Notes under the pieces: model-generated
Databases searched by the model: none
What the model was told of the DNA's origin: nothing
What the model saw: only the letters and a program-made list of their open reading frames with translations
Translations under genes and position numbers: made by a program
From: Odontesthes bonariensis
Taxonomy: Eukaryota; Chordata; Actinopteri; Atheriniformes; Atherinopsidae
Direction of reading: 5' to 3'
NCBI RefSeq assembly: GCF_027942865.1
Contig: NC_134528.1
Span: 6,381,586 to 6,445,585 of the forward strand
Length of the DNA stretch: 64,000 bases
Shown here: positions 351 through 36,588 of the stretch, piece after piece
How the letters are laid out: each line of letters begins with the position of its first letter
Position numbering within the stretch: the first letter of the stretch is position 1

Positions 351-762
351 ATGAACAAAGTTACACAGCTTCCTGCTAACACTTAAACTGTGTTGTGTCT
401 CACTCTTCCTCATTGTCCTGTAACACAAGGCTCTCACGCTGACCTGCCCTGACAGCCTGTCTTTATTGGACACTGAATAAAAATAACAGATAAGTGTCGT
501 TAGCGTTACATTTATATTACTCACGCCAACACATCTTTCACTTACGACATTACTGTTAGACATTCGACGTTAGCTAGTTAACGTTAGTCAGTCAGATAGT
601 AGTTTTCTTACCTTCATAGTTGTGTATGTATGACGCCGCATATAATTTAAAACCTTTATCCAACTTGCTTGTTGGGGCTTTGGTCGTCCTACAAATCCGG
701 TGAACATCAGTGATGTTCAACTTTGGGAGCTCTTGTAAACACCGGGTGTAGAATGTCGCCAT
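351..762 (-). pseudogene. Truncated SWIM/YqaJ gene, exons 1-2 (arm A)
   Basis: The minus-strand start codon is at 762-760. Exon 1 (762-612) begins MATFYTRCLQELPKL and ends at a GT donor in phase 1. Exon 2 starts after a TTTTATTCAG acceptor at 472 and stays homologous to the right-arm copy until about 351, just before the SWIM zinc finger would be reached; there the sequence changes completely. Exon 1 keeps an open frame where the right-arm copy has lost 4 bp, so this arm is the better reference for the N-terminus. The nuclease part is absent, so the copy cannot make a complete protein. Family knowledge: ISL2EU/IS4EU transposons carry a YqaJ nuclease gene next to a DDE transposase. Confidence 0.7.
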
Positions 763-870
763 TTTTAAACCGGAAACATCTGAGTAGTAATAAGTCGTAA
801 TAAGTTGAACGCGGAAGTGTTTGTGCAAGTAGCGAATTTAGGAGTAATGTAAAACACAGTTCTGTTCAAA

Positions 871-893
871 GGGGGCGGGGCTTAGTGACGTCA
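871..893 (-). promoter_or_regulatory. GC box plus consensus CRE upstream of the SWIM/YqaJ gene (arm A)
   Basis: GGGGGCGGGG lies at 871-880 and the palindromic CRE TGACGTCA at 886-893, about 110-130 bp upstream of the minus-strand start codon at 762. The same pair occurs at the matching place in arm B. A bidirectional or ubiquitous Sp1/CREB-type promoter is an inference. Confidence 0.6.
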
Positions 894-1059
894 GCAAAGA
901 CGTGAATGTGATTACAGCTGGTCTGTTAATAAACACAGAAAGTTTCATTAACCCACGACCTTGAAGTTATTCCATCATGATGTTTGATGGCGAAAGGTCA
1001 GACTTTAAAGCTTAGCCACGCCCACATACTGTGATGTAGCCAAAAATGATAGAACAGTC

Positions 1060-1139
1060 ATCAAAAGAATGTCATCACTGTGATGTCATAATGAGATCAG
1101 ACACACAGTGTGATGTCATAATGAGATCAGACACACAAT
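1060..1139. repeat. Satellite units left of the Harbinger element (arm A)
   Basis: Two copies of a 30-31 bp unit containing TGATGTCATAATGAGATCAG. They are the short left flank of the same array that continues at 2732 after the Harbinger insertion. Confidence 0.85.
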
Positions 1140-1632
1140 GGCCCTCATTTATCAAGCCGTCGTAGAAAGCATCGTTGATATGAGCGGAGAACTCGTCGTA
1201 CGCAGAGGCTCAAGTGAGATTTACAGAACATGCGTACCACACCAATCCCATCGTAAAACCGAGCGGCTGTTGATAAATCCGGTGGCTGAAATCCATCGTA
1301 ATGATCCTAACCACGCCTTCTACAAAAGGGGGCTGAGAGGCCGCACCTCTAGAATTTGCGACATGGATAGACGAAAGGCGGCAAAGAAACGCTGTCAACA
1401 GCGTTGACAGCTGGGAGGGCTGTCAACAGCGTTGGCGATGTAAATCGCAGACCGGACGAGGTATGTATTTTCCCCTACTGTGATGGTCAATAAAATGTGA
1501 TAAACTCCAGATTAAATTAAATCTAAAATTGAGCGATGTTTTACTGTTTCTCCAGTAAGATCAGGAAGAAGTTGTCCGATATGAAAAAGAAGGTCGCAGC
1601 TCTCCTACGCTCAGCATGTCACAAACGGGGGG

Positions 1633-1664
<32 letters not shown>

Positions 1665-2731
1665 AGGGTGGCTGGCGTGATCGGAACGACGTCCTCATCG
1701 GTGTGCCAGGGAAACTTGACACTGATGCGCCCATGCTAGAGCTCGAGAATGGTAAGAATGACTGCACACCCAAGACGTTTAAATAAAACAGTTGTATACG
1801 CGGCCCGTCAACATCCGAAGCCTCTGCCTCTGCCTCTGCCCCCCGGTCTGCAGCGTCACACCGGCCAGCCGTGTTAACCACAGAGGTCCTAGAAAGACAA
1901 ACAGAGATCGTGAAGTGGATGATGGCTTTAACACACACCATGCAATCTATCGACAGTACATTGAAAGACATAAATGAAACACTGAAGTCACAGAATAAAT
2001 GCTGAAAGAAATCGTTGTTCTCCTTTCTTTTTTCCTTGAATAACAGAATGCTTACCAAAAGTCAGAATCGCTGAATACGTTCCTCTCTCCTCCTGAGCGC
2101 TCTTGGCTGTGCAGGCTGGTGGAAGGGATCTCTGGGTACGGGGTCCTCTGGATGTACATCTGGAAATGGCACTCCATTTTTTTGGGCAATGTTATGGAGA
2201 TCCCCGCATGCAATAATAATATTGCATACCTTTTCGGGCGTATAGGGTTCCCCCCGCAGCCGAGAGACAGATCCAGCTTTAGGAGTCCTATACACCTCTC
2301 CACAGTGGCACGCGTGCGCGAATGCGCAGTGTTAAAGCGCCTCTCCTGTTCGGTGTGAGGGTGCACGGTTGAATAATGAGCCATCACTCTTCCAATTACG
2401 GAGTTGTACTTGTTTAATTTATTTAATTTGCGTTTATGTTTATATTTATGTTGAAGTCAAATAAAACATGGGCCTTCTTCAAAGTGATAAGTCTGTAATT
2501 TTAACCTAGAGATTTGTTGCGACTCCTGAGCACGCACTAGTGACGCTGCTGTATTGCAGTCACCGCAAGTCAAAATGGAAAAGTGCGTACACCGGCCTCA
2601 GACCTGTCGTGGCGATTTCATCTTTCCTGCGCTCACGATGGATTTGATAAATGCCAACCTTTGCGCAGAAAAGAACGTACACACGACCTACGCACGTTTT
2701 TCGTCTTACGCAAGTTTGATAAATGAGGGCC
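1140..2731. mobile_element. Non-autonomous Harbinger-family element inside the satellite (arm A)
   Basis: The ends are inverted repeats of GGCCCTCATTTATCAA. The flanking trinucleotides are AAT on the left and AGT on the right, an AGT-type 3 bp target duplication with one later change; the arm B copy has a perfect ACT/ACT pair (same site, opposite strand). Inside are two decayed coding remnants: a plus-strand stretch near 1536-1620 resembling a Myb/SANT-like Harbinger DNA-binding protein, and a minus-strand piece of the transposase. A poly-G tract at 1628-1643 is followed by GGA repeats. Relative to arm B it lacks about 100 bp near 1795. Confidence 0.8.
2052..2387 (-). pseudogene. Harbinger transposase C-terminal remnant (arm A)
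   Basis: The minus-strand peptide contains AHSRTRATVERCIGLLK followed, after a frame change near 2290, by PEKVCNIIIACGDLHNIAQK. Both are typical of the C-terminal end of PIF/Harbinger (HARBI1-like) DDE transposases, around the last acidic residue (the E of VERCIG). The N-terminal two thirds, including the first catalytic aspartates, are missing, so it cannot be functional. Confidence 0.75.
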
Positions 2732-3076
2732 AGTGTGATGTCATAATGAGATCAGACACACAGTGTGATGTCATAATGAGATCAGACACATCACTGTAAT
2801 GTCATAATGAGATCAGACACATCAGTGTGATGTCATAATGAGATCAGACACACAGTGTGATGTCATAATGAGATCAGACACATCACTGTGATGTCATAAT
2901 GAGATCAGACACACAGTGTGATGTCATAATGAGATCAGACACATCAGTGTGATGTCATAATGAGATCAGACACACAGTGTGATGTCATAATGAGATCAGA
3001 CACATCAGTGTGATGTCATAATGAGATCAGACACACAGTGTGATGTCATAATGAGATCAGACACATCAGTGTGATG
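2732..3076. repeat. 30-31 bp satellite array, main block (arm A)
   Basis: Eleven tandem units, mostly alternating between a 30 bp form ending ACACACAG and a 31 bp form ending ACACATCAG. Each carries TGATGTCATAATGA, a near-CRE. With the two units before the Harbinger insertion, arm A has thirteen; arm B has four plus six. Confidence 0.9.
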
Positions 3077-3084
3077 TCAGCAAA

Positions 3085-3108
3085 CATGACATCATTAATG
3101 ATGTCATG
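3085..3108. promoter_or_regulatory. 24 bp perfect palindrome next to the satellite (arm A)
   Basis: The two 12 bp halves, CATGACATCATT and its exact complement, meet without a spacer. Each half contains a TGATGTCA-like core as in the satellite. It is conserved in arm B (31972-31995) and lies about 200 bp upstream of the coiled-coil start codon. A bZIP-type binding site is inferred. Confidence 0.5.
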
Positions 3109-5256
3109 ACTGTTTGAATGTTTGCTACTCCAGCCAAATTCTTAACCAACTCGTGTTTTAATTCCCCAGCGACGGAGGCGGATCGTGAGACGGACACATC
3201 TGGACAAGTTAACAGCAAATACACAAAGATCATAAATCTCAGTGTTTGGAACAACAAAAACACAGTTGTTAGTTGATAGAGATGTTTTTGTTTTTACAGA
3301 AAGTGAAAAATGTTTAAGTGCAGGCAGTCAGATTCTCTCCAGGCTCTTTCAAAAGAGAATGAGACTCTTCGTCAAGAGAGGAAAACCCTCAACAGCGATA
3401 ATCAAATCCTTCAGAAAGAAAACAAGGATTTGTCCAAGACAAACAATGAATTAAAAGAAGCAATGGAGAAGACGTTACAGGACATGAAAAATAAGAATAG
3501 GACTTTGGAGCAACCGATTCTGACAAAAAATACAGAAAAAGAAGCAATGGAGAAGACGTTTCAGGAACAAAGAAGATTGATTGAAAGCCTTCGCAAAGAA
3601 ATAGAGCATTTACAAAGCAAAAGCAAAAACAAAACGAAAAGGGACCTCCAGATACAAAATGACCTGTTGAGCATAAAGATTGAGTACCTGGTCAAAGATA
3701 AAAAGTACCTAATAAGCCGAAACAATACTTACAAGTTACAAATGGAGAAGACGTTACAGGACATGGAAAATAAGAATAGGACTTTGGAGCAACAGATTCT
3801 GACAAACAATGCAGAAAAAGAAGTAATGGAGAAGACGTTACAGGACATGGAAAATAAGAACAGGACTTTGAAGCAACCGATTCTGACAAACAATGCAGAA
3901 AAAGAAGCAATGGAGAAAACGTTTCAGGAACAAAGAGGATTGATTGAAAGCCTTCGCAAAGAAATAGAGCGTTTACAAAGCAAAAGCAAAAACAAAACGA
4001 AATGGGACCTCCAGATACAAAATGACCTGTTGAGCATAAAGATTGAGTATCTGGTCAAAAATCAAAAGTACCTAATAAGCCGAAACAATACTTACAAGTT
4101 ACAAATGGAGAAGACGTTACAGGACATGGAAAATAAGAATAGGACTTTGGAGCAACAGATTCTGACAAACAATGCAGAAAAAGAAGCAATGGAGATAAGT
4201 TTACAAGTGGAAGAAGAGAGCATGAATCTGATAGACCTATAGTCGAGTGCATTTATGGAAAAATACCACACAACCCTAAAAAAATTCTAATAAAAGGTTT
4301 CGAAGCTGTCTTGTGTGGTATTAGGTGTCCTTAATAACATACTAAAAATCTGCCAAAATCTGACTTGAGGAAAGGCCTCAATTTTCAAGATGGCTGCCGC
4401 TGGGCCCTTAAAATGACTGTAGCCATAATATTGACCAGGAATAGTGGTGTTTCATACATGTTTGGACTATATAATATTCTAATTACAATATTGATTTGAT
4501 GGATAAGTGGTGCTAAGTACAATTTGATTGTTTTTTTTGTTTTGTTTGTTTTTAAGAAAAACATTACAACTGCTGGCTCTTAAAATAACTACTTCAAAAA
4601 CCATTAAGAAACAAAGGTTTCTATTAGCTGTTTTGTGTAGTATTGGGTGTCCTTATAGCATAATAAAAGTCTACCAAAGTCTGAAAACTAGAAAGGTATC
4701 ATTTTCAAGATGGTGTGTAAAATGGGCACAAAGCCCTTGAATTACTTATTTGACTTGGATACAGATTCCTGGTGTTTCCTTGAATGTTTTTGACTTATTA
4801 GCCCATTGGACTTGTCTAAATTCCACTGCAATGATCACATACTTATTGAGTATAAAATTTAGTTAAGGGTTTTGTCTTCATTTTCGGGTGAAAGAGTCAT
4901 GTAAATAATTAAGACTATAATGCCAAACTCAGCATGTTTTCATATGCCTAAACGACATACATGACATTCAATGTAAATGTGATTACATCTAAGAGTATAA
5001 TTGTATTAACATGACATGACTACTTAAAACATCCATACCACCAACCAGCTCCTTGTCTACATTGTCCGCGGGAAAATAACAGTGTGAGAAAATTATGGCA
5101 GGAGGGGCCTGGTATCCATAGTGACACAACATTCCGAATGTCAACATTACAGCAGAAAAAAACTTTTCTCACACACATTCTTCATGAGGGAGTCGAACAG
5201 ACATATATATCTCACATAAAAAGATCAATAATTTCAGAAAGTACAGTACAAATGCA

Positions 5257-6448
5257 GTGTTGACAATGAATAACCCTGTAGAGCAGGAAACATGCTCAAT
5301 TTGCCGAAAAAAGTTGAGAGATGGATCTGATGTAGTTGAGGTTCATCAGAAAGGTGCTGATGGAATCAACTCTGCTAGTGTACAAAGAGGAGATGATTTA
5401 CACATTTCTGCTGGTGAAATTGTACACTTAAAATGTAGAAAGAAGTACACAAACAGAAAAGAGCTTAAGGTGCAACAACAGAGTAAAGCCGAATCTCCAA
5501 AAAGAAGTGCCAGAGTAGCCACTGGTCCTTTCAACAGCCAGACCGACTGTCTTTTCTGTGGCACTACAATAACACATGGCACTAAAGATACAAGTTGTGT
5601 TAAGACTGATTCGCTTGTTGAGTCGATTCTTGAGTGTTGTCACAAGCGTGCAGATGAATGGGCTTTCACAGTGAAGGGCAGGATTGAGTATTACGGTCGT
5701 GACCTACATGCTGCTGACTGTATTTACCACCACTTATGTAGTAGCAGTTTTCGTAATGGATATAACATCCCAATACAATTCCAGCAAGACAAAGAGGCAA
5801 AACGAAGAAAGTCTGGCCGCCCCAAAAATGAAGTTAAGGAGCAGGTATTCTTCCAACTTTGTTCTTACCTTGAAAGTCATGATGAAGAACATATGACAAT
5901 TACACATTTTCAAGATAAAATGAGGGAATTCATGGCTGACCCATATGTGGAACCATATGGAAACCAATACCTGAAGAGAAAATTGAGAGAACAGTACCAG
6001 GACAATGTACATTTCACTGAGGGGGAAGGCCTTCATGATATAGTAACATTCAGAGAGCAGACATCACACATTCTCAGATCTTATTTTTGTGACCAAAAAA
6101 TGGATGAGGAATCGCAGAAAGAAGCAATCATTCAAACAGCTGCGCGATTGATCAAAAATTATATAAAGTCCAATGTCCCATCTGTTATGGACCAGTACCC
6201 GACCTCAAAATCACTGGGGATGGAAACTTGTGGACGATCGCTTCCTGCCAGTTATGACCAGCAAACCTGCTGCCCCTGATAGCCTCCTGAAGATGGTCCA
6301 CTGCAATTGCACAAGGGGCTGCCAAACCCAACGCTGCAGTTGTAAGGCATATGGACTACCATGTTTGTCTGCTTGTGGGCCATGTCAAGTTGGCAATTGT
6401 GTAAATAGCTTGAATAAACCTCAGTGGGAAGAAGAATGTGATGACTAG
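5257..6448 (+). pseudogene. CXC/tesmin-like cysteine-rich transposon protein, frameshifted
   Basis: The first frame (5257-6279) gives 340 residues. Its N-terminus has paired-cysteine motifs (CSICRKKL near residue 14, CLFCGTTI near residue 98) and a HLKCRKKYTNRK segment. A second frame (to 6448) gives the C-terminal CXC module, starting CNCTRGCQTQRCSCK and ending CGPCQVGNC, the pattern of tesmin/TSO1-like DNA-binding domains. The frames must be joined somewhere in 6200-6275, so one frameshift separates the body from its DNA-binding tail. Similar proteins are scattered through fish and invertebrate genomes and behave as mobile-element genes; the biochemical role is not known to me. Its place between long TIRs supports a transposon origin. 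Confidence 0.65.
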
Positions 6449-6832
6449 TGCATCTTGTCAAGGTCAATGAAACAAAAATGGAACAATAGGAAAGAACTGA
6501 AGAAAATGCATCGAAAATGTTTCTGTTCAACTTTTTCTGTTCAAATGTTTCTGTTCAACTTTGTAAATAAGTTATATCACAAAAATGATAAAAAAAAGAA
6601 AAAAAATATATAATAAAAATAAAAAAACAATCAAAAAAAAAACAAAAAAAAAAAACACAAGGGGTTAGCGGTACTGAGCCTACACGTGGCGGCCCTGTTT
6701 TGACTAATTCTACAGTACCACACAGTACTAATTTTATTTATTTTATATCAAATTGTACTCCAAATCACTTACTTATAAAGCAAATGCACTAATTAAAATA
6801 TTACATGGTCAAAACATGTATGAAACACCATT

Positions 6833-7371
6833 AAGGCTCGTGTATACTTCGCAGCAGTGTGTCGCAGTGAGCTTGTCGCAGACATGACGCAGTTATTTTT
6901 GATTTATGCCTTGAGGCGCTGTCTGCGCTATGTTAATCCCACGCCACAACGCAAGAGGGACAATCACGCACAAGCTAGGATTGTGGGTGTTACAGTCATT
7001 CAACAACAATGGCGACTGGACGAATGCGCACTTTGATTGAGATGCAGCTGATCGATCTAGAAATAGAAGAAATATTGCTACTACTGGAGTTGGCAGAGAG
7101 GGAAAGAATCGTCACGGTTAGCACGGTTAGCGTCAGCCGGTTAGCAAACCGGAAATACGCATAGTGTAGAGCGGATGTAGAGTTGACCAATCAGAGGCCT
7201 CCTTTCTCTCCTCCTTGCGACGATATCTGCGGCACTGTCTGTGGTGAGTTACAATTTTGAGGAGGTGCACCAGAGTGTTTGCGTAGTGTCTGCGTAGGGG
7301 GGGGGGGGCATGTCTGCGTTAACTGCGACACACACGCAGACGACCTGGTTTCCGAGTATAAATCAGGCTTT
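6833..7371. mobile_element. MITE nested in the right TIR of the CXC transposon
   Basis: Related inverted ends (AAGGCTCGTGTATACT against AAGCCTGATTTATACT) are bounded by the trinucleotide ATT on both sides, consistent with a Harbinger-like 3 bp duplication. Removing it rejoins the right TIR of the surrounding transposon. The interior is noncoding and rich in TCTGCGT/GCAGAC motifs, with an 11-base G run near 7298. Confidence 0.6.
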
Positions 7372-8127
7372 ATTCCTGGCCATTTCAAGGTGATTCTAAG
7401 GCCACAGTCATTTTAAGGGCCTGACGGCGGCCATCTTGAAAAGGCCTTTCCTGAAGTCAGATTTTGGCAGATTTTTAGTATGTTTTTAAGTACATCTGAT
7501 ACAACTGGAAACCACTGAAAAACCTTTTGTTAGATTTTTTTTGGGGTCAACTCATATCTGCACTCTAGTTCTGCAGAAACTCAAGGATCAGATGAAGGAA
7601 ATCACCCAAGAGCTTGAAGTAACAGCGCAGACCTGTCGAGACATGACCCAGGAGAATGTTTCTGTCCGTCAGGAGAATCAGGCCCTGAAACAGGAAGTTT
7701 GTGAGCTCCAGGAAAAAACTTCAGGATGGAGAAGAAACAATAAAATAGAGGAGGGAGGTTCAAGAAAGTCCTCTGATCCAAGGGACTTTGAGAGAATTAA
7801 AAGACTTGATTGAAAGCCTTCGCAAAGAAATAGAGCCTTTACAAAGCAAAAGCAAAAACAAAAAGAAAAGGGACCTCCAGATACAAAATGAACAGTTGAC
7901 CATAGACAATGAGTACCTGGTCGAAGATACCAACTTCCTAATAAAAGCCGAAACAATACCTACAAGTTACAGAACGAACGAATGGAGAAGACGTTACAGG
8001 ACATGGAAAATAAGAATAGGACTTTGGAGCAACAGATTCTGACAAACAATGCAGAAAAAGAAGCAGTGGAGACGTTAGAGGACAGTAAGAGCTCGTGGAG
8101 TGTGTTGAGATTTTTGCTAGATTTTTG

Positions 8128-9305
8128 ACTGCTAAAAGTAAATTTGCTGGAGGCTTGTTTTCACAGTGTGATAACAGCCCCATTGTCATTTATGTCGTGA
8201 AAGATCTGTACACTGCACTGTTGGGAAGGCCTGCCATCCAACAGCTCCAGCTTGTAAGCAGTCGACAGCATCACCATGGACACGGTGAAACAACAGTATC
8301 CAAAGCTGTGCAGCGGCTTGGGTCTTGTTCGGAGGCCATACACACTTAAACTTAAACCAGGTGCGGTGCCCTTCTCTCTTTCAGCGCCCCGCAAAGTCCC
8401 TCTACCGCTCATGAGAAAAGTGAAGGAGGAGATAGGTCGCATGGAGAAGATGGGCGTGATCACCAAGATCGAGGAGCCAACCGAGTGGTGCGCCGGGATG
8501 GTGGTGGTGCTAAAAAAAGACGGTACTGTTCGCATTTGTGTGGATTTTACAAAGATGAACGAATCAGTTTGCAGAGAGAGATTTATCCTGCCATCAGTTG
8601 AGCACACTCTGGGCATGCTATCAGGTGCAACAGTTTTCAGCAAACTAGATGCCAGTATGGGCTTTTGGCAGGTGCCCTTGACAAAAGAGTCTGCCAAATA
8701 CACAACCTTCATCACGCCTTTTGGGCGCTACTACTTTAACCGGCTACCCTTTGGCATAGCTTCCGCCCCGAGCACTTCCAGAGGATGATGATGACGGAGG
8801 TGACCGCAGGCCTGGACGGGGTACTGTGTCACATGGATGACGTGCTTGTCTGGGGACGGACACAGGACAAGCATGACATGCGGCTACATGCAACGCTTCA
8901 GAAAGCGCAAGAGGCTGGCATTACACTTAACGTGGACAAATGTGAGCTCACACAGTACACAGTCAAATTCCTGAGTCATGTGATTTCAGCAGATGGTGTG
9001 GAGCCAGATCCAGAGAAGACAAGAGCAGTGCAAGGGATGGATGCACCGAAAAATGTCAGCGAACTCAGGAGTTTCCTGGGTATGGTCAATCAGCTGGGGC
9101 GCTTCATACCTCACCTGGCTGAAAAACACAAAGTTCTACGAGACTTGCTGTCCAAGAAAAACCACTGGTACTGGGGAACAGAACAACAGGCCGCCTTTGA
9201 TCAGCTAAAAGCTGAGCTGTCGTCATCACCAGTGCTTGCACTATACAACCCAAACAGTGCATTGAAAATCTCCGCCGATGCCTCTTCTTTCGGCCTAGGC
9301 AGAGC
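8128..9305 (+). mobile_element. Gypsy retrotransposon, 5' part (protease end and reverse transcriptase)
   Basis: The sequence starts inside the end of a retroviral-type protease (a VVKDLYTALLGRPAI segment) directly after the coiled-coil stop, so gag and most of the protease are missing. The reverse transcriptase follows in two frames (8276-8788 and 8785-9315). Visible motifs are FSKLDASMGFWQVPL, LPFGIASAP and the active-site MDD in HMDDVLVWG. A 1-2 base shift at about 8775 separates the fingers/palm from the rest. The frame then enters RNase H (DASSFGLG) and is cut at about 9305 by unrelated sequence. It cannot transpose by itself. Confidence 0.85.
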
Positions 9306-12300
9306 TATAGAGTAATACAGAGTTGAGACACGCTTTGAAGTCGCCGCTAGGGCTGTCACGTGGTTCATGTGAGCCTCCGGAGTTCCAAACATCACAGCGC
9401 TCTCAGTCAGTTTGAACGGGTTTTAGTGGGACGGAGCACAAAAACGATAACTTTAACATTTACGACGCAATTTTCGGTAAATATTGACCCATAACGTGCA
9501 TTGATCACTACACCGACGATGTATTTTATCAACGTTTTTCTTTTTTGGAGCGGCAGAGACACATATCACCATTTTAAATCGTAGAGGGTACCCCTGCATG
9601 CTGGCAGGGGGCAGCTAACTTGTCCTCCTTTATACTGAATCATGCCAGAGGTCCAGCTTACCTTCAGGTCTACATCCTTCAACAGAGCCTGATGTTACTG
9701 TCTTTTCCCAGGATCTACTCCTGTTGTCCCAAACACTCCATCTGTAGAAGATGTCATTCAGTCTGTCTGTTCTCTCTGGTGTCAGATGGACAATGAGCCT
9801 CCCCCCCGCGACCTGATTGACGGATTCAGCGTGTATAATGGATGGATGGATTACAATATGAATTTAACTTTTTTTCTGGTTAAAAACATATTAATGACAA
9901 AACAAATGTGTCAGTTGTGGAAAAAAAATAAACAAAACAGATTTAAACCAAACATTTTATTATAAAATGTCATCATGGAAAATGTAAAACAAGCCTTAAT
10001 AAAGAAGTTATTTTACTGCTATTTATACTGTTGGGTAGATTAATCTGCAACAATGAACTGTATTTGATCAAATTCAAGGGTTTGGACATTGTAGAAAAGT
10101 GCTGAAGTCCTAATGAGGGTTGATCCATGACAGCAGCGAGCACCATCTGCTGACCTCTGTAGCAGTCACAGTGCCGTGTGGATTAAGAGTTTTTCAAACT
10201 TTGACAAAACCAACATTCCTGTGGGGGATGTTTACGTATGTGGATATAAACCAGATCTTCATTTTCTTTCCACAAAGGAAAAAGAGACAGAAACTGCCTA
10301 ATTTACGTTAACCTTCTACCCTTTTGAGAGTTTTTGGGGAGTCGAACTCGCAACAGACGCTCTCCATAAATTGCTGGGATAAACTCGAATGAACAAAGAA
10401 CCTTTCTGTTGGAAATGTCGGAGACCTCAATATCTTATCTTCACCATAAATCGCGGTTGGCATTTTAACGCCCTCTCCCACCAGAGAAAGAGACCAGATG
10501 GCTACCCACAAACTGAGAAGACTTCACTAAGACTCACTTTTAGTCGAATCTTAAAACTATATTAAATGTGTTTGATAACCGTACACAATTTCTTTCAGGT
10601 TTCCAGCTTGATCACAAGACGCATATAGAGACAACTTGTCCGATTCTGGCTTAAATATTGACAAAGAACTGATCTTGGTTGAAAATGCCCAACCTGCCTG
10701 ATGGAACCACATTGCCCCCTAGTGGTCTGCAGTGTTGATTAGTTGAACATTTAAATCCCAGAGGACTCAGTAAAATGGACAATATATGCAACTATTAACT
10801 TCTAACGATGTCCCTTCGGTATCTATTTGGTATTTGTTTGGTATCCCCATTGTTAACACAGAAAATTAACATTGTGTGGTTCACTATTCATATGTCACGA
10901 TTTCATAGATATTCATCTGAATTTTGAAAGTCATAATCATCAATTACGTTGTGTGTTATTTTGATGTCTTTATATTGCAAGTCTGTTATATCTTTAATCT
11001 GCATATCTTAACAAGATGTAGTGTTTTCAGAATCACTGAGACAAATGTTCTATGAGACAGAGTAATGGAGAAATAAGAGTTTCTTTGTCTCATCCAGAAA
11101 TCCCCATATAAAAACAGATCATCTTACACAGACACTCAGGCAGACATTCACACAGTTCAAGCATATCATTGGCTGAAAAAGTAGTGTAGCTTACGTCATG
11201 CCCCGCCTCCTAGAGTCAAAACCCGGAGCCCGCGAAAAACACAGCCTCTCGTTCTCTCGCTTCTGGCTTCTTGTCTTGTTTCTGGCTTCATGCCACTTGT
11301 TCCAGAAGAGTTTCAACCCAGAGTTTCAGAATCGAACAGAGAACAGTTGCTCAGAGAGTTTTGGAGATGGTTTGAGCAGAAGAGAAGAGCTCACCAGAGT
11401 TTGGGAGTTTTCCCATAATCTCAGGAGAGAGCGGAAGGACGTGAGGATGAGCGATGCAGAGGACGACCGGAGGAAGCCCTCCAGAACCCAGTGAGACCCC
11501 GGAGACGAGAAAGAAAGACCCGAACAAAGATAAGAACAGAATGAAGTTTTCCTACCCAGAAAGCCAACTCCAAGCAACCTTTTATTAATCTTCTGTGAAC
11601 TTAAGTTCACTTCAGCAGAGAAGCAACGGACCCACTGACACTCAGAAGATTCGATCATCTAACCACAGCCCTCGGCACCATCGTTCCCGTTTCCCAGTGA
11701 AAGAAGCAACTGAGAAGTCCGCTAAAGTCAGCCACCACAGCCAGGAAGGCCCAGAGAGCGGAAGAGAAATCCCCTCGGACCCCGCGTGGCCGCTGCCGTG
11801 TTCCGAGCTGACTAAGCAGAACTTCAGCACAGTAAGACCGACCCGTTTTCACCTTAAAGGGGGTTTGATGGATGTCTCGAGGCTTTCACAGAATGATACA
11901 TTAATCCGAAATGTCAGTATTTAGCTTCAAATAGTCAACCCAAACTATTTGAATAAATCCAGTATCTCCCCATTCCCCATATTTTATTTTCCATTCACTA
12001 AGTGTTTTATATAAACACCCATATTCAATGCATCTCCTGTTTGTTTTAAAGGTTCATGTTTTGGTCATATCATTTTAATAAATAGTTCATATATCTATAT
12101 ATATATGTTATAATCACAGATTGTGTCGTATGCTTTCTTTACGTAATGTCTGTCCAACCAAACGAGAACTTCACGAAAGTAGCGAGATATGAGACTGATT
12201 ATTAATTGATTATTAATTGATTATTAACTGATTATTAATTTAACATACCAGGATCGTAATATTTCAACAGTTTTCCTACCTGACTGTCACTTAAAGTAAA

Positions 12301-12816
12301 TTATAGGTAGGTGGTGCCCTTAATTCGAGGTTTAAGATAAATCCTTATATATAATTGCCCCATTACGCTACACCTCCCTGACAACAAGAGAAATTAATAA
12401 ATTCATTATCACAGCTGCAATGTCATGCTGAAAAAACTTACTTAATTAAAGACAAGTCAGCTAATGCCTCACTATGCCAAAAATGTTGTAATTTAATCAA
12501 TTTACCGGAGAAAATACGTCAGAAATACCAAAAATGAATTAAATATATAGTATTTTGGTAATGTTTTAAAACCTAACAATCAAAACAACTTTACACAATG
12601 TCACTTTAGTGAAATTATCACGTTAATTACCTCACGTTAGCCTCCGTTACCAAGCTTTAAGCTAGGTCCCTAAATCCATTCCATTTTTAACATCAACATC
12701 GACATTTCATGCTAACCAAATGTAAAAATAACGATGTCTAAGAGTATACTTCTGACAGATAATGCTTTAAAATGTAAAAAACGTTGAAAATGCTGTTATT
12801 TTATTAACTTACCAGT
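9306..12816. other. Sequence interrupting the Gypsy element
   Basis: About 3.5 kb of noncoding DNA separates the two halves of the Gypsy element, with some 50 codons of RNase H lost at the junction. I see no intact gene. An AGTAAT hexamer occurs at both junctions, but I see no matching terminal repeats. Within it, 11180-12372 looks like a separate dispersed repeat, with GTGTAGC-type ends and a tandem TGATTATTAAT stretch near 12200. The short open frame at 11198-11494 has no recognisable domain. Confidence 0.5.
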
Positions 12817-22950: not shown

Positions 22951-23045
22951 GTTTGAACACGTTTGATTGAGGAAGTCCTGTGTGAGCTCAGCCAGCCGAG
23001 CATGGACGTCAACGTGAAGCTATAGTCTGTATCTGGTTCGCCACC

Positions 23046-26000: not shown

Positions 26001-26381
26001 CCGTGGAAGATCCCTTTGTGTAAAATAGTTTGTGTATGGCAGTTTTCAGCGTGTCGTTTTCCACCAGGTGTCACCAAACTCGGAGTGAGAAAGTTTCAAG
26101 CCAAAATCGGAGTGGACAACCAGCTCAGCGTTGCCATGTTTAAGAAGCTGCACTTCCAGGAGGTAAGAAGATGACGTCATGTCATTACGTGAGCGGGTTA
26201 GGCTCTAAAAATACTAATTTTATTGCTGCAGGTGTCGGTGTGTAAGGTTTTTAAAGAGGTGACCCTTGAGTTGACGGTGGATGAGTCCAGTCTGAGGAAG
26301 CTGCAGGACGACGTCGCCCACATGAAGGAACGAGACTACAGACAATCCCGCAGCAACAGGCATGAACTGCTTTCACAGTGA
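23046..26381 (+). CDS. nat9: N-acetyltransferase 9 (GNAT family)
   Basis: GNAT-fold acetyltransferase; NAT9 orthologues have been linked to microtubule stability. Exons: 23046-23122, 23963-24072, 24269-24409, 25513-25572, 26068-26162 and 26232-26381. They join in frame to 210 residues, close to the human length of about 207. The start has a strong GCCACCATGA context. The N-terminus MKINENTLLEGHRVVLVPY, the middle EIMIAEPSHRGKGIGKQV (RGKGIG is the acetyl-CoA-binding Q/R-x-x-G-x-G/A loop) and GVRKFQAKIG are diagnostic. All junctions are GT-AG. Intron 3 holds a LINE/SINE tail with about 24 GCAAG repeats. It follows syt15 on the same strand and lies inside the inverted-repeat loop. Confidence 0.95.
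25137..25310 (-). repeat. (GCAAG)n microsatellite tail of a retroelement in nat9 intron 3
   Basis: About 24 perfect five-base units, then TTTTATTTGTAGAGCACAAT. Read on the minus strand this is a LINE/SINE 3' end with a TTGCC-repeat tail. The length is a multiple of five, so all frames stay open through it. Confidence 0.75.
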
Positions 26382-29293: not shown

Positions 29294-29334
<41 letters not shown>

Positions 29335-29543: not shown

Positions 29544-29544
29544 A

Positions 29545-31770
29545 TCAAAAATCTAGCAAAAATCTCCACACACTCCAGGAGCTCTCACTGTCCTCTAACG
29601 TCTCCATTGCTTCTTTTTCTGCATTGTTTGTCAGAATCCGTTGCTCTAAAGTCCTATTCTTCTTTTCCATGTCCTGTAACGTCTTCTCCATTGCTTCTTT
29701 TTCTGCATTGTTTGTCAGAATCCGTTGCTCTAAAGTCCTATTCTTCTTTTCCATGTCCTGTAACGTCTTCTCCATTGCTTCTTTTTCTGCATTGTTTGTC
29801 AGAATCCGTTGCTCTAAAGTCCTATTCTTCTTTTCCATGTCCTGTAACGTCTTCTCCATTGCTTCTTTTTCTGCATTGTTTGTCAGAATCCGTTGCTCTA
29901 AAGTCCTATTCTTCTTTTCCATGTCCTGTAACGTCTTCTCCATTGCTTCTTTTTCTGCATTGTTTGTCAGAATCCGTTGCTCTAAAGTCCTATTCTTCTT
30001 TTCCATGTCCTGTAACGTCTTCTCCATTGCTTCTTTTTCTGCATTGTTTGTCAGAATCCGTTGCTCTAAAGTCCTATTATTCTTTTCCATGTCCTGTAAC
30101 GTCTTCTCCATTGCTTCTTTTTCTGCATTGTTTGTCAGAATCCGTTGCTCTAAAGTCCTATTCTTATTTTCCATGTCCTGTAACGTCTTCTCCATTGCTT
30201 CTTTTTCTGCATTGTTTGTCAGAATCCGTTGCTCTAAAGTCCTATTCTTATTTTCCATGTCCTGTAACGTCTTCTCCATTGCTTCTTTTTCTGCATTGTT
30301 TGTCAGAATCCGTTGCTCTAAAGTCCTATTCTTATTTTCCATGTCCTGTAACGTCTTCTCCATTGCTTCTTTTTCTGCATTGTTTGTCAGAATCCGTTGC
30401 TCTAAAGTCCTATTCTTCTTTTCCATGTCCTGTAACGTCTTCTCCATTGCTTCTTTTTCTGCATTGTTTGTCAGAATCTGTTGCTCCAAAGTCCTATTCT
30501 TATTTTCCATGTCCTGTAACGTCTTCTCCATTCGTTCGTTCTGTAACTTGTAGGTATTGTTTTGACTTTTTATTAAGAAGTTGGTATCTTCGACCAGGTA
30601 CTCATTATCTATGGTCAACTGTTCATTTTGTATCTGGAGGTCCCTTTTCGTTTTGTTTATGCTTTTTAAACGGTCTATTTCTTTGCAAAGGATTTCAATA
30701 ATATCTTTTAATTCTCTCAAAATCCCTTGGAACTGAGGACTTTCTTGAACCTCCCTCCTCTGTTTAATTGTTTCTTCTCCCTCCGGAATTTTTTCCTGGA
30801 GCTCACATACTTCCTGTTTAAGGGCCTGATTCTCCTGACGGACAGAAACATTTTCCTGGGTCATGTCTCGACAGGTCTGGGCTGTTACTTCAAGCTCTTG
30901 AGTGATTTCCTTAATCTGATCCTTGAGTTCCTGCAGAGCTATTATGTCTTTCAGTTCCATGCTCTCTTTTTCCACTTGTAAACTTATCTCCATTGCTTCT
31001 TTTTCTGCATTGTTTGTCAGAATCCGTTGCTCTAAAGTCCTATTCTTCTTTTCCATGTCCTGTAACGTCTTCTCCATTGCTTCTTTTTCTGCATTGTTTG
31101 TCAGAATCCGTTGCTCCAAAGTCCTATTCTTATTTTCCATGTCCTGTAACGTCTTCTCCATTGCTTCTTTTTCTGCATTGTTTGTCAGAATCCGTTGCTC
31201 TAAAGTCCTATTATTCTTTTCCATGTCCTGTAACGTCTTCTCCATTGCTTCTTTTTCTGCATTGTTTGTCAGAATCCGTTGCTCCAAAGTCCTATTCTTC
31301 TTTTCCATGTCCTGTAACGTCTTCTCCATTCGTTCGTTCTGTAACTTGTAGGTATTGTTTCGGCTTTTTAGGAAGTTGGTATCTTTGACCAGGTACTCAT
31401 TATCTCTGGTCAACTGTTCATTTTGTATCTGGAGGTCCCTTTTCTTTTTGTTTTTGCTTTTGCTTTGTAAATGCTCTATTTCTTTGCGAAGGCTTTCAAT
31501 CAATCTTCTTTGTTCCTGAAACGTCTTCTCCATTGCTTCATTTTCTGCATTGTTTGTCAGAATCTGTTGCTCCAAAGTCCTATTCTTATTTTCCATGTCC
31601 TGTAACGTCTTCTCCATTGCTTCTTTTAATTCATTGTTTGTCTTGTACAAATCCTTGTTTTCTTTCTGAAGGATTTGATTATCGCTGTTGAGGGTTTTCC
31701 TCTCTTGACGAAGAGTCTCATTCTCTTTTGAGAGAGCCTGGAGAGAATCTGACTGCCTGCGCTTAAACAT
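29545..31770 (-). CDS. Repetitive coiled-coil protein, 741 residues (arm B)
   Basis: One open frame from the start codon at 31770-31768 to the stop at 29545. A TTTTTACAG-type acceptor lies just upstream, so a noncoding first exon is likely. The protein is almost pure charged coiled coil: residues 1-150 are irregular (SLQALSKENETL, RLIESLRKEIEHLQSK), then four copies of a 28-residue unit starting MEKTLQDME, a middle segment (ELKDQIKEITQELEV, CRDMTQENVSV), then eleven more copies, and a short tail ending WRFLLDF. The unit is exactly four heptads (84 bp), with Leu/Met/Ile and Asn at core positions. No catalytic, membrane or signal segment is seen. It is head to head with the SWIM/YqaJ gene in both arms. 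Function unknown; a transposon-borne structural protein is a guess. Confidence 0.7.
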   Translation of the reverse strand: MFKRRQSDSLQALSKENETLRQERKTLNSDNQILQKENKDLYKTNNELKEAMEKTLQDMENKNRTLEQQILTNNAENEAMEKTFQEQRRLIESLRKEIEHLQSKSKNKKKRDLQIQNEQLTRDNEYLVKDTNFLKSRNNTYKLQNERMEKTLQDMEKKNRTLEQRILTNNAEKEAMEKTLQDMEKNNRTLEQRILTNNAEKEAMEKTLQDMENKNRTLEQRILTNNAEKEAMEKTLQDMEKKNRTLEQRILTNNAEKEAMEISLQVEKESMELKDIIALQELKDQIKEITQELEVTAQTCRDMTQENVSVRQENQALKQEVCELQEKIPEGEETIKQRREVQESPQFQGILRELKDIIEILCKEIDRLKSINKTKRDLQIQNEQLTIDNEYLVEDTNFLIKSQNNTYKLQNERMEKTLQDMENKNRTLEQQILTNNAEKEAMEKTLQDMEKKNRTLEQRILTNNAEKEAMEKTLQDMENKNRTLEQRILTNNAEKEAMEKTLQDMENKNRTLEQRILTNNAEKEAMEKTLQDMENKNRTLEQRILTNNAEKEAMEKTLQDMEKNNRTLEQRILTNNAEKEAMEKTLQDMEKKNRTLEQRILTNNAEKEAMEKTLQDMEKKNRTLEQRILTNNAEKEAMEKTLQDMEKKNRTLEQRILTNNAEKEAMEKTLQDMEKKNRTLEQRILTNNAEKEAMEKTLQDMEKKNRTLEQRILTNNAEKEAMETLEDSESSWSVWRFLLDF
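29600..30535 (-). repeat. 84 bp tandem repeat, eleven copies, in the coiled-coil gene
   Basis: Eleven near-identical 84 bp units encode the 28-residue heptad block. Single-base variants distinguish MEKK, MENK and MEKN forms, in runs suggesting stepwise unequal exchange. A second block of four units lies at about 30990-31330. Arm A has only one unit in the matching final block. Confidence 0.9.
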
Positions 31771-31971
31771 TTTTCACTTTCTGTAAAAACAAAAATGTCT
31801 CTATCAACTAACAACTGTGTTTTTGTTGTTCCAAACACTGAGATTTATGATCTTTGTGTATTTGCTGTTAACTTGTCCAGATGTGTCCGTCTCACGATCC
31901 GCCTCCGTCGCTGGGGAATTAAAACACGAGTTGGTTAAGAATTTGGCTGGAGTAGCAAACATTCAAACAGT

Positions 31972-31995
31972 CATGACATCATTAATGATGTCATG
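31972..31995. promoter_or_regulatory. 24 bp perfect palindrome (arm B)
   Basis: Same sequence as the palindrome at 3085-3108, about 200 bp upstream of the coiled-coil start codon and adjoining the satellite. Confidence 0.5.
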
Positions 31996-32135
31996 TTTGC
32001 TGACATCACACTGATGTGTCTGATCTCATTATGACATCACACTGTGTGTCTGATCTCATTATGACATCACACTGATGTGTCTGATCTCATTATGACATCA
32101 CACTGATGTGTCTGATCTCATTATGACATCACACT
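31996..32135. repeat. Satellite block, coiled-coil side (arm B)
   Basis: Four 30-31 bp units (ATCTCATTATGACATCACAC on this strand) between the palindrome and the Harbinger copy. Confidence 0.85.
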
Positions 32136-33863
32136 GGCCCTCATTTATCAAACTTGCGTAAGACGAAAAACGTGCGTAGGTCGTGTGTACGTTCTTTTCT
32201 GCGCAAAGGTTGGCATTTATCAAATCCATCGTGAACGCAGGAAAGATGAAATCGCCACGACAGGTCTGAGGCCGTGTACGCACTTTTCCATTTTGACTTG
32301 CGGTGACTGCAATACAGCAGCGTCACTAGTGCGTGCTCAGGAGTCGCAACAAATCCCTAGGTTAAAATGACAGACTTATCACTTTAAAGAAGGCCCATGT
32401 TTTATTTGACTTCAACATAAATATAAACATAAACGCAAATTAAATAAATTAAACAAGTACAACTCCGTAATTGGGAGAGTGATGGCTCATTATTCAACCG
32501 TGCACCCTCACACCGAACAGGAGAGGCGCTTTAACACTGCGCATTCGTGCACGCGTACCCCTGTGGAGAGGTGTATATGGCTCCTAAAGCTGGATCTGTC
32601 TCTCGGCTGCGGGGGGAACCCTATACGCCCGAAAAGGTATGCAATATTATTATAGCATGCGGGGATCTCCATAACATTGCCCAAAAAAATGGAGTGCCAT
32701 TTCCAGATGTACATCCAGAGGACCCCGCACCCAGAGATCCCTTCCACCAGCCTGCACAGCCAAGAGCGCTCAGGAGGAGAGAGGAACTTATTCAGCGATT
32801 CTGACTTTCGGTAAGCATTCTGTTATTCAAGGAAAAAAGAAAGGAGAACAACGATTTCTTTCAGCATTTATTCTGTGACTTCAGTGTTTCATTTATGTCT
32901 TTCAATGTACTGTCGATAGATTGCACGGTGTGTGTTAAAGCCATCATCCACTTCACGATCTCTGTTTGTCTTTCTAGGACCTCTGTGGTTAACACGGCTG
33001 GCCGGTGTGACGCTGCAGACCGGGGGGTAGAGGCAGAGGCAGAGGCTTCGGATGTTGACGGGCCGCGTATTCGTCGTGCGGGTCAGGTGACCCGGATGCC
33101 ATTTTGGATTCATCTGTGAATGAAAAATATTAGTTTGATTAGGAAACTCATTTGTGTTGAAAATTAAAGCAACTGTTTTATTTAAACGTCTTGGGTGTGC
33201 AGTCATTCTTACCATTCTTGAGCTCTAGCATGGGCGCATCAGTGTCAAGTTTCCCTGGCACGCCCGATGAGGACGTAGCTCAGATCACGCCAACCACCAT
33301 CTCCTCCCAAGGCACTCAAATCCAAACCTGGACCCCCCCCCCCCCCCCCCCCCCCCCCACCTCCTCCCGTTTGTGACATGCTGCGTCGGAGAGGTGCGAC
33401 CTTCTTTTTTGGCCAATTTCATATCGGACCACTTCTTCCTGATCTTACTGGAGAAAAAGTAAAACATCGCTCAATTTTAGATTTTATTTAATCTGGAGTT
33501 TATCACATTTTATTGACCATCACAGTAGGGGAAAATACATACCTCGTCCGGTCTGCGATTTACATCGCCAACGCTGTTGACAGCTGGGACGGCTGTCAAC
33601 AGCGTTGACAGCGTTTCTTTGCCGCCTTTCGTCTATCCATGTCGCAAACTCTAGAGGTGCGGCCTCTCAGCCCCGTTTTGTAGAAGGCGTGGTTAGGATC
33701 ATTACGATGGATTTCGGCCGCCGGATTTATCAACAGCCGCTCGATTTTACGATAGGATTGGTGTGGTACGCATGTTCTGTAAATCCCACTTGAACCTCTG
33801 CGTACGACGAGTTCTCCGCTCATATCTACGATGCTTTCTACGACGGCTTGATAAATGAGGGCC
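32136..33863. mobile_element. Non-autonomous Harbinger-family element (arm B)
   Basis: Inverted ends GGCCCTCATTTATCAA with a perfect ACT target duplication at 32133-32135 and 33864-33866. Same element and same site as in arm A. A transposase C-terminal remnant is on the plus strand at about 32480-32805 (TPEKVCNIIIACGDLHNIAQ), and a Myb/SANT-like remnant is on the minus strand near 33400-33467 (FSSKIRKKWSDMK). A poly-C tract at 33333-33358 replaces the poly-G of arm A. Confidence 0.85.
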
Positions 33864-34058
33864 ACTGTGTGTCTGATCTCATTATGACATCACACTGATG
33901 TGTCTGATCTCATTATGACATCACACTGATGTGTCTGATCTCATTATGACATCACACTGTGTGTCTGATCTCATTATGACATCACACTGTGTGTCTGATC
34001 TCATTATGACATCACACTGTGTGTCTGATCTCATTATGACATCACAGTGATGACAGTC
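33864..34058. repeat. Satellite block, YqaJ side (arm B)
   Basis: Six 30-31 bp units; the matching flank in arm A has two. Confidence 0.85.
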
Positions 34059-34231
34059 TTTTGATGACTGTTCTATCATTTTTGGCTACATCACAGTATG
34101 TGGGCGTGGCTAAGCTTTAAAGTCTGACCTTTCGCCTTCAAACATCATGATGGAATAACTTCAAGGTCGTGGGTTAATGAAACTTTCTGTGTTTATTAAC
34201 AGACCAGCTGTAATCACATTCACGTCTTTGC

Positions 34232-34254
34232 TGACGTCACTAAGCCCCGCCCCC
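34232..34254 (+). promoter_or_regulatory. CRE and GC box upstream of the SWIM/YqaJ gene (arm B)
   Basis: TGACGTCA at 34232-34239 and CCCCGCCCCC at 34245-34254, about 110-130 bp upstream of the start codon at 34363. Order and spacing mirror arm A. Confidence 0.6.
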
Positions 34255-34362
34255 TTTGAACAGAACTGTGTTTTACATTACTCCTAAATTCGCTACTTGC
34301 ACAAACACTTCCGCGTTCTACTTATTACGACTTATTACTACTCAGATGTTTCCGGTTTAAAA

Positions 34363-36588
34363 ATGGCGACATTCTACACCCGGTGTTTACAAGAGCTCCC
34401 AAAGTTGAACATCACTGATGTTCACCGGATTTGTAGGACGACCAAAGCCCCAGCAAGTTGGATAAAGGTTTTAAATTATATGCTGAGTCATACATACACA
34501 ACTATGAAGGTAAGAAAACGACTATCTGACTGACTAACGTTAACGTTAACTATCCATCCATCCATCCATTATCTATACCGCTGAATCCGTCGATCGGGTC
34601 GCGGGCGGGCTGGAGCCTATCCCAGCAGTCAATGGGCGAGAGGCGGGGTACACCCTGGACAGGCCGCCAGTCCATCGCAGGGCCACATAGAGACAAACGA
34701 GACAAACAACCATGCACGCTCACACTCACTCCTAAGGACAATTTAGAGATGCCAATCAACCTAACATGCATGATTTTTTGGACAGTGGGAGGAAGCCGGA
34801 GTACCCGGAGAGAACCCACGCATACACGGGGAGAACATGCAAACTCCACACAGAAAGGCCCCAGCTGGGTGTTGATTAACGTTAACTAGCTAACGTCAAA
34901 TGTCTAACAGTAATGTCGTAAGTGAAAGATGTGTTGGCGTGAGTAATATAAATGTAACGCTAACGACACTTATCTGTTATTTTTATTCAGTGTCCAATAA
35001 AGACAGGCTGTCAGGGCAGGTCAGCGTGAGAGCCTTGTGTTACAGGACAATGAGGAAGAGTGAGACACCACACAGTTTAAGTGTAGGCAGGAAGCTGTGT
35101 AACTTTGTTCATGCTTTGTTTATGCTTCGCGATTCATCGCCAGTGGTGTTGACGCACAGCCAATGCTCCTGTGTGGCAGGCACTGTTTTGTGCAATCATA
35201 TAGTGGCATTGCTGTTCCAAACAGCACATTATTCACAACTAAACATGCCAGTTGTGCCCCCTTTGCATAGCTGCACAGAATCTGAACAGCAATGGCACAA
35301 GCCGCGAACAATGGTAATTTAAATGATGTTCAGGTTTTTTTTTTATTTATCTGTTTTGATTTAAAGTGACTCCATCCACAGTAAATGTTTTTTTCCATTA
35401 GGATGTGAAGCCAGGACCTATTAACTCCATGGTCTTTACCAAGCCGGAACCAAATGGGATGGTACAGACTGGAGTAAGGTAATTTGAGTTGTAAAGTTTT
35501 GATTCCTGTGTTACAAAAACATATTGCTATTTCTTCATTTGCTGTATTCCTCACCTTATTATGCTTTATCAATGTGCTGTGTTTTACCTTAACAATTCTT
35601 TATAGGAGTGGATTGTACAGAGGCATGGTGGGTCCATTACCAGATCCCTGCATGTTCAGAGTAACGGAGGCGTATGCAAACTTTAGTGTTGAGGACAAGC
35701 CACTTGTGACCACAATGAACATGAGACCTGACCAAACCCCTTGTGGAAAGTGCTTTCGGGTTAGTGCAGAAGGGCAGTGTCCTGTTATATCAGCAGCCTG
35801 CTTTGACATCCCAGCACATCACACTAAATTATGACACACCACCAACACCACACTTGCCTCTGGAAGGGTACGATGGCTTGCCATCTGATTGCATGTTTGT
35901 GTGCTCAGAAGAGGAACTACTACATCTGAGCAGTATGGCTTTAACTTTAGAAATGGCTCACAAAATTGAGGAGGCAACACGTGAGCAAAGCTGTTGCTCT
36001 GAATGGCATCTGCTCCGCAGACCCAGGGTGACCGCCTCTAGGTTTCGAGAGGTGTGTCATGTCAGGGGCCAGAGCTCTGCAGAGTCACTTGCAGAGCGCT
36101 TCATGAAGAGAACAAGGCAGACAGCAGACATGAGGAGAGGTGCTGAGATGGAGCCTGTAGTAGCAGCTGAGTACAGTAGGCTACTTAATGTTATTTACTC
36201 ACCCTGTGGTCTTGTCATTCATCCCATTACACCCTGGCTCGCTGCCTCCCCCGATGGAATTGTTTTTGACCCCACTGAATACCCCCAATTTGGCCTTGTC
36301 GAATTCAAATGTCCCAATGTGCAAAACTTCGTTGCCTGCAAATATCTGCAAATGGAATGTGGTTCCCCTGAACTAAAGAAGAGTCATGCATATTCCTGGC
36401 AAGTGCAAAGACAACTGCGCATCACTGGAATGCAGTGGTGCGACTTTGTTGTTTGGGCGCAGGAGGACTACCTTGTGCAACGAATACACACGGATCCCCA
36501 AGTGCAAAGATCAATTAGAGAAAAAGCTGACCATTTCTTTTTCTACGTATACATGCCAAGATACCTGTCATTGAGAAAAGAACTATAA
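34363..36588 (+). pseudogene. SWIM zinc finger / YqaJ nuclease gene of an ISL2EU-like transposon
   Basis: YqaJ is a lambda-exonuclease-type nuclease fold. ISL2EU/IS4EU elements carry such a gene beside their transposase, presumably for DNA processing during transposition. Likely exons: 34363-34509, 34991-35314, about 35401-35479, 35606 onward. The SWIM motif is CSCVAGTVLCNHIV (C-x-C, then C-x-H). The nuclease part (about 35930-36588) has RPRVTASRF, the acidic motif MRRGAEMEPVVAAEY, PWLAASPDG, LVEFKCP (the catalytic E-x-K) and the HAYSWQVQRQL helix, all intact. Two breaks are visible: a 4 bp loss in exon 1 relative to arm A, and a frame change at about 35735 before GLVQKGSVLLYQQ. It is therefore probably dead. 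The cut at 35113 in the arm match falls inside exon 2. Confidence 0.8.
34552..34876 (-). mobile_element. RTE-like (Expander-type) LINE 3' fragment
   Basis: It starts with ATCC repeats (the inverted 3' tail) and contains GGCGGGGTACACCCTGGACA and GGGGAGAACATGCAAACTCC, hallmarks of a very common fish retroelement end. An 11 bp target duplication, TAACGTTAACT, flanks it at 34541-34551 and 34877-34887. Arm A keeps the single empty site at 576-586. Confidence 0.85.

What the first reader, a model, noticed from the sequence alone, without database searches (positions are those of the whole stretch)
351..35113. Multi-kilobase inverted arms enclose syt15 and nat9
The same module occurs in opposite orientations at 351-8127 and 29546-35113, with two intact host genes in the 21 kb loop. 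Such arms invite inversion by recombination, gene conversion between arms and assembly errors. NAT9 is not next to SYT15/GPRIN2 in human, so the loop may mark a rearranged interval. The matches are seen directly; the inversion risk is inferred.
Basis: partly seen in the sequence, partly recalled or inferred. Interest (0 to 1): 0.75.

Follow-up and report, generated by a model that had tools for sequence, protein, structure and literature searches.

The report
Inverted transposon-rich duplication around syt15-nat9
Two inverted copies of a several-kilobase, transposon-rich DNA block lie on either side of the genes syt15 and nat9 in what is likely a fish genome, and they would be expected to let the stretch between them flip, although no flip has been seen.

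Summary
Arm A (351-8128) and arm B (29545-35112) are inverted copies: all of arm A outside a 3.3-kb insertion, but for one base, lies in arm-arm alignments. The core is 97.8% identical (57 mismatches in 2568 columns); 10 shuffled windows gave no such alignments. The arms are one composite block: a stretch that in arm B leads into the YqaJ nuclease ORF of an ISL2EU-type transposon, a 30-bp minisatellite split by a decayed Harbinger-like copy, and a coiled-coil ORF of 28-residue repeats. The nested copy is shared, so the block was most likely duplicated as a unit. Afterwards arm A took a 3.3-kb insertion and now ends against a Gypsy-type fragment; arm B took a 0.33-kb insertion with a target-site duplication. 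These private changes and the unrelated flanks argue against an assembly artefact. A 308-bp exact tract could seed recombination, but no inversion is shown: relatives, long reads and the rest of the genome could not be reached. In the window syt15 and gprin2 point the same way; I recall them divergent in human, which flipping the loop would give. Known kind of structure; modest interest.

The parts
351..8128 (+). Arm A of the inverted pair
   Evidence: BLAST pairs with 35112-29545; coverage 4454 of 7778
29545..35112 (-). Arm B of the inverted pair
   Evidence: coverage 5141 of 5568
34288..34533 (+). Likely first exon region of the ISL2EU YqaJ gene (ORF with MATFYTRCLQELPKL...), also in arm A at 592-837 on the - strand
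   Evidence: ORFs; the arm A copy has no Pfam hit; assignment inferred from its place upstream of the YqaJ ORF
35725..36588 (+). YqaJ-type nuclease ORF of the ISL2EU-type element, just outside arm B
   Evidence: PF09588, E 1.7e-21
36862..37621 (-). ISL2EU-type transposase pieces (HTH_Tnp_4 and DDE_Tnp_4), outside arm B
   Evidence: PF13359 E 5.2e-23, PF13613 E 9.9e-13
1073..3079 (+). Arm A: 30/31-bp minisatellite in two parts flanking a decayed Harbinger-like copy
   Evidence: 13 unit matches, end sequences by eye; DDE_Tnp_4 tail 22.5 bits, below the curated 24.8
32001..34052 (-). Arm B: the same minisatellite and nested Harbinger-like copy
   Evidence: 10 unit matches
3307..4242 (+). Arm A copy of the coiled-coil ORF, ending in a stop at the insertion site
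   Evidence: 311-aa open frame; junction sequence
29545..31773 (-). Arm B coiled-coil ORF, 742 codons, built largely of 84-bp (28-residue) repeats
   Evidence: 16 MEKTLQDME starts, 13 of 15 spacings 28 residues
4243..7565 (+). 3.3-kb insertion in arm A with subterminal inverted repeats (4273-4427 / 7397-7547, 82%); arm B is uninterrupted at 30939-30941; exact ends and target duplication unclear by a few bases
34545..34873 (+). 0.33-kb insertion in arm B, flanked by TAACGTTAAC repeats (LINE-like tail by recall); arm A has the sequence once
8129..14022 (+). Gypsy-type sequence at arm A's inner end (reverse transcriptase, RNase H and, after an uncharacterised middle part, integrase)
   Evidence: PF00078, PF17919; PF00665 at 12859-14019; 'Gypsy' is inferred
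14827..18132 (+). syt15 gene in the loop
   Evidence: exon ORFs; C2 E 4.3e-13, two stretches; name by recalled similarity
22986..26378 (+). nat9 gene in the loop
   Evidence: exon ORFs; Acetyltransf_3 E 9e-18; name by recalled similarity
50908..52914 (+). gprin2-like gene outside the loop, used for orientation
   Evidence: GRIN_C PF15235 E 1.1e-14
2975..3282 (+). Arm A side of the longest exact arm-arm tract (308 bp), partner 31798-32105

Best explanation
The two arms are inverted copies of one transposon-rich block, likely made by a single duplication that carried the whole block, and they are predicted to let homologous recombination flip the 21-kb interval holding syt15 and nat9. Shown: both arms share, in the same order, a stretch that in arm B leads into a YqaJ nuclease ORF, a minisatellite interrupted by the same decayed Harbinger-like copy, and a coiled-coil ORF; each arm also carries an insertion that the other lacks. 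Inferred: B (or its ancestor) was the source, because open frame and transposon genes continue past B's outer edge and its coiled-coil ORF is unbroken, while A stops short. Inferred: a break repaired by template switching or fold-back copying made the second copy in reverse. Untested: crossing over between the arms would invert the loop without loss, and conversion between them would keep parts alike.
For: Inverted alignments over all of arm A but the insertion and one base. Shared nested insertion: by eye the Harbinger-like copy sits at the same phase of the minisatellite unit in both arms, and 1796-2865 / 33070-32001 is colinear at 97.9%. No terminal inverted repeat within 40 bases of the arm ends (longest shared word 5 in each arm; 2000 random pairs: mean 4.0, 95th centile 6) and no exact abutting target duplication of 2-12 bases, as expected of a duplication rather than a transposition. 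Arm-private insertions with the other arm as the uninterrupted site. Longest exact tract 308 bp. Uneven divergence, 12 of 5000 shuffles as clustered.
Against: Copy number in the rest of the genome is unknown: nine requests to the genome search did not complete. If the block is dispersed in many copies, these two need not descend from each other. Two of three stretches of the coiled-coil ORF are more diverged (16 of 234 and 4 of 69 mismatches; the third 8 of 254) than the outer 750 columns (10 mismatches), which one simple duplication without later conversion or uneven constraint does not predict. The end test used the BLAST edges, which may be off by some bases. No inverted allele or species is shown.
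Confidence: 0.68

Rival explanations
1. The arms are two separate insertions of one large mobile composite, an ISL2EU-type transposon that has taken up a minisatellite and a coiled-coil gene, which happened to land in opposite orientations.
For: The block abuts ISL2EU-type coding sequence; the coiled-coil ORF is open over 742 codons in arm B; the surroundings hold other transposon genes.
Against: No terminal repeats or target duplications at the arm ends as BLAST places them; arm A's inner edge abuts a Gypsy-type fragment and an open frame crosses arm B's outer edge; no inverted ends for the ISL2EU element found from 31.7 to 41.5 kb.
Confidence: 0.25
2. The second arm is an assembly artefact (false duplication or mis-joined repeat).
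For: Long similar arms are a known cause of mis-joins (recalled); no reads could be examined.
Against: 72 of 2868 aligned columns differ, with 7 indels of 4 or more; each arm has a private insertion; flanks do not match.
Confidence: 0.07
3. The arms have already flipped the loop in this lineage, so that syt15 now points the same way as gprin2 when it used to point away from it.
For: syt15, nat9 and gprin2 are all on the + strand here; human GPRIN2 has SYT15 as its nearest upstream gene (PMC10924726, section read), divergent as I recall; flipping the loop would restore that arrangement.
Against: No outgroup fish order seen; a glycosyltransferase-family ORF and the ISL2EU element also separate syt15 from gprin2; an old rearrangement unrelated to the arms would give the same orientation.
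Confidence: 0.2

Closest known systems
Inverted segmental duplications that mediate inversions by non-allelic homologous recombination (for example human 15q25, PMC6436712, search listing only)
   Same: Opposed, similar arms around a gene-bearing interval
   Different: Arms here are only kilobases long and transposon-built, and no second orientation is documented
Retrotransposon recombination-mediated inversions between human and chimpanzee (PMC2603318, passages read)
   Same: Inverted repeated elements as the recombining arms; 53% of the inversions there lie in genic regions
   Different: Those arms are L1 or Alu copies; here the arm is a composite with a shared nested insertion, and no inversion has been observed
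ISL2EU transposons of the PHIS superfamily (PMC4482050 and PMC9179366, passages read)
   Same: YqaJ ORF plus a DDE/HTH transposase next to arm B
   Different: Only a stretch on the YqaJ side lies in the arms; terminal repeats and the AT target duplication were not located
PIF/Harbinger and Pangu transposons (PMC4482050, PMC9179366, passages read)
   Same: DDE_Tnp_4-like tail and short inverted ends around the nested copy; by eye an AGT duplication in arm B, which fits the ANT given for Pangu (not the TWA given for PIF/Harbinger)
   Different: Only a domain match below the cut-off; most of the transposase is not seen; Myb partner not confirmed
Fold-back inverted duplications (PMC3907307, abstract and outline read)
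   Same: Inverted copies separated by a spacer
   Different: Those described are large patient rearrangements; the short inverted sequence expected at the spacer edges was not tested here

Membership tests
Inverted segmental duplication | Two long colinear copies, at least 1 kb and 90% identical (definition recalled) | tested here: met
   4454 bases of arm A covered; core 97.8% over 2568 columns; one 150-column step is 88.7%
Inverted segmental duplication | Block not itself a high-copy interspersed repeat | not testable with these tools
   The genome search did not complete (9 calls); within the window 23 of 23 matches to the minisatellite unit lie in the arms
Inverted segmental duplication | Arms share a derived nested insertion, flanks differ | tested here: met
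Single transposon inserted twice | Terminal inverted repeats and target-site duplications at both arms' ends | tested here: not met
   at the BLAST edges: shared end word 5 in each arm (random 95th centile 6), no exact abutting duplication of 2-12 bases
ISL2EU | YqaJ exonuclease ORF and DDE transposase with HTH or THAP | tested here: met
   (element next to arm B)
ISL2EU | TIRs starting GG and AT target duplication | tested here: inconclusive
   No matching inverted ends found in 31.7-41.5 kb or between 27.5-32.1 and 38-42.5 kb
PIF/Harbinger-like (nested copy) | DDE_Tnp_4 transposase | tested here: inconclusive
   22.5 bits against a curated 24.8
PIF/Harbinger-like (nested copy) | Myb/SANT partner ORF | tested here: inconclusive
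   ORF 1114-1407 has no Myb match in Pfam at E 0.1; ORF 1787-2005 not scanned
Recombination-mediated inversion | Both orientations of the loop observed | not testable with these tools
   No relatives or reads held

The most novel reading that the evidence does not exclude
The arms form a working flip switch: recombination between transposon-built inverted arms has inverted the syt15-nat9 interval in this fish lineage, and the loop may still be found in both orientations.
Probability: 0.17. Interest if true: 0.5.

Novelty: new member of a known kind. Interest (0 to 1): 0.3.

Why it matters
If the loop does flip, it would be a small, datable case of transposon-built inverted duplications reorienting ordinary genes, with arm-private insertions that mark the order of events. 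If it does not, it is still a caution: similar arms here can mislead short-read assembly and gene-order comparisons around syt15 and gprin2.

Tried and rejected
Two independent transposon insertions: held as a rival, disfavoured by the shared nested copy and the missing end signatures. Assembly duplication: disfavoured by private insertions and unmatched flanks. A constrained host role for the coiled-coil ORF: between the arms, 420 bases at its start show pN 0.057 against pS 0.032 (19.5 and 2.5 changes), so no sign of purifying selection in that pair; among 16 repeat units in arm B pN/pS is 0.60. Its only hit in the protein collection (1 protein at E 0.001 or better among the 7994 candidates scored; 29% identity; leucine-rich and NACHT domains) is taken as a chance match of 28-residue repeats. 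Viral contigs: 0 matches to a 28-base minisatellite pattern, none confirmed of 2 stretches for the coiled-coil ORF, 6 distant YqaJ relatives of 24 stretches; none bears on the question. Papers: none in the library held syt15, gprin2 and synteny together. Other searches near these genes (one search showed 10 of 498) listed nothing on fish gene order that I could see from titles and abstract starts. PMC6549351 was looked at by passages and gave no strands. An ISL2EU right terminus was sought and not found.

Full report
What is there. A self comparison of the window gives a dominant inverted pair: 351-8128 against 35112-29545. Of 112 inverted BLAST pairs at E 1e-10 or better, 105 join the two arms (many overlap, because of tandem repeats) and 7 do not; ten shuffles gave none. 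All of arm A lies in arm-arm alignments except the stretch 4243-7565 and one further base.

How alike the arms are. In a direct alignment of 351-3438 with its partner, 72 of 2868 aligned columns differ, with 7 indels of 4 or more columns. Leaving out the minisatellite and a homopolymer-rich stretch (A positions 1073-1137, 1600-1700 and 2731-3079), 57 of 2568 differ. Divergence is uneven: 10 of 750 columns in 351-1104, 38 of 600 in 1105-1706 (which includes the homopolymer-rich stretch), 24 of 1518 in 1707-3438; in three short stretches of the coiled-coil ORF it is 8 of 254, 16 of 234 and 4 of 69. On the filtered columns the worst 450 hold 23 mismatches, reached by 12 of 5000 random orders. Conversion between the arms, or with other copies, could do this; so could uneven constraint. 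The longest exact tract is 308 bp, and 9 tracts reach 100 bp, some overlapping in the tandem repeats.

What the arms are made of. Reading arm B from its outer edge inwards: first, a stretch that leads into an ISL2EU-type transposon, whose YqaJ nuclease ORF lies just outside the arm at 35725-36588 (PF09588, E 1.7e-21) and whose transposase pieces lie at 37621-36862 on the other strand (PF13359 and PF13613). An open frame (34894-35322; no Pfam hit) crosses the arm's edge, and the ORF 34288-34533 inside the arm is likely the first exon region of the YqaJ gene; both assignments are inferred. Two papers give the pairing of a YqaJ ORF with a DDE/HTH transposase as typical of ISL2EU (PMC9179366, PMC4482050; passages read). 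Terminal repeats were not found, so the element's limits are open. Second, a 30/31-bp minisatellite, present in the window only in the arms (23 of 23 matches with up to 3 mismatches), interrupted in both arms by a Harbinger-like copy with short inverted ends (TGGCCCTCATTTATCAA at one end, its reverse complement at the other; by eye) and a transposase tail that scores just under Pfam's cut-off (22.5 against 24.8 bits). Third, a coiled-coil ORF, 742 codons in arm B, with 84-bp repeats in arrays of 11.1 and 4.1 copies.

Why a block duplication. By eye the Harbinger-like copy sits inside the minisatellite at the same phase of the unit in both arms, and 1796-2865 / 33070-32001 is colinear. Two independent insertions of simple elements would not share a nested, decayed passenger. 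At the edges that BLAST gives, neither arm has terminal inverted repeats (longest shared end word 5 in each, random 95th centile 6) or an exact abutting target duplication. A composite that moves as one unit remains possible and is the main rival.

What happened afterwards. Arm A carries a 3.3-kb insertion at 4243-7565 with subterminal inverted repeats (82%); arm B is uninterrupted at 30939-30941. Its target duplication is unclear (TAG at most, by eye). Arm B carries a 0.33-kb insertion flanked by TAACGTTAAC on both sides, where arm A has the sequence once; that it is a LINE-like tail is recalled. Arm A's coiled-coil ORF meets a stop at the insertion, and its inner end runs into sequence that soon reads as reverse transcriptase, RNase H and, further on, integrase, which I call Gypsy-type by inference; 9.3-12.9 kb was not characterised. 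That these events came after the duplication is inferred from their absence in the other arm. They suggest that the arms have been separate loci for some time and speak against an assembly artefact.

The loop and the inversion idea. The loop (8129-29544) holds syt15 and nat9, both on the + strand. The names are recalled similarity; Pfam gives C2 (two stretches) and a GNAT acetyltransferase. Outside, a gprin2-like gene (GRIN_C) is also on the + strand. PMC10924726 (section 16 read) places human GPRIN2 on the reverse strand with SYT15 nearest upstream and NPY4R nearest downstream; it reports that this human block was itself duplicated in reverse orientation, which I take to be a separate event. 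SYT15's strand is not in that text; I recall the two human genes as divergent, and NAT9 on another chromosome. If so, syt15 is turned relative to gprin2 in this window, and flipping the loop between the arms would turn it back. That is suggestive only: no other fish could be read, and a teleost-wide rearrangement would look the same. Inverted repeats as inversion-makers are documented (PMC2603318, passages read).

What could not be done. The window's own genome did not answer, I found no vertebrate genome collection among the tools, and there are no reads. So copy number, polymorphism and gene order in relatives are all open.

Verdict. It is a new instance of a known kind, inverted duplication of a transposon-rich block, with modest interest.

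Noticed in passing
29601-30532 and 30987-31330: 84-bp tandem arrays in the coiled-coil ORF (11.1 copies at 99% matches, 4.1 copies at 97%) keep frame in arm B, with 28-residue spacing; arm A has a 2.2-copy array at 3741-3929.
   Followed up: partly
5188-6448: Open frames with cysteine-rich motifs inside the 3.3-kb insertion of arm A; the one scanned (5188-6276) has no Pfam match above cut-off. Unclassified DNA transposon.
   Followed up: partly
40830-41505: A tight hairpin of two arms, 97% identical over 294 columns, beside a glycosyltransferase-family ORF.
   Followed up: no
14288-14532 and 42556-42828: A second, shorter inverted pair (about 95%) with one copy in the loop between the Gypsy-type integrase and syt15, the other outside near the glycosyltransferase-family ORF.
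   Followed up: no
25139-25259: (AGGCA) repeated 24 times without error, between two likely nat9 exons.
   Followed up: no
20098-20663 and 55412-55976: Direct pair, 97%, next to a reverse-transcriptase ORF (20286-21314, - strand); likely two copies of a LINE end 35 kb apart.
   Followed up: no
28589-28748 and 29365-29518: An 87% direct repeat just inside arm B, downstream of the coiled-coil stop codon; no match elsewhere in the window was reported for it.
   Followed up: partly
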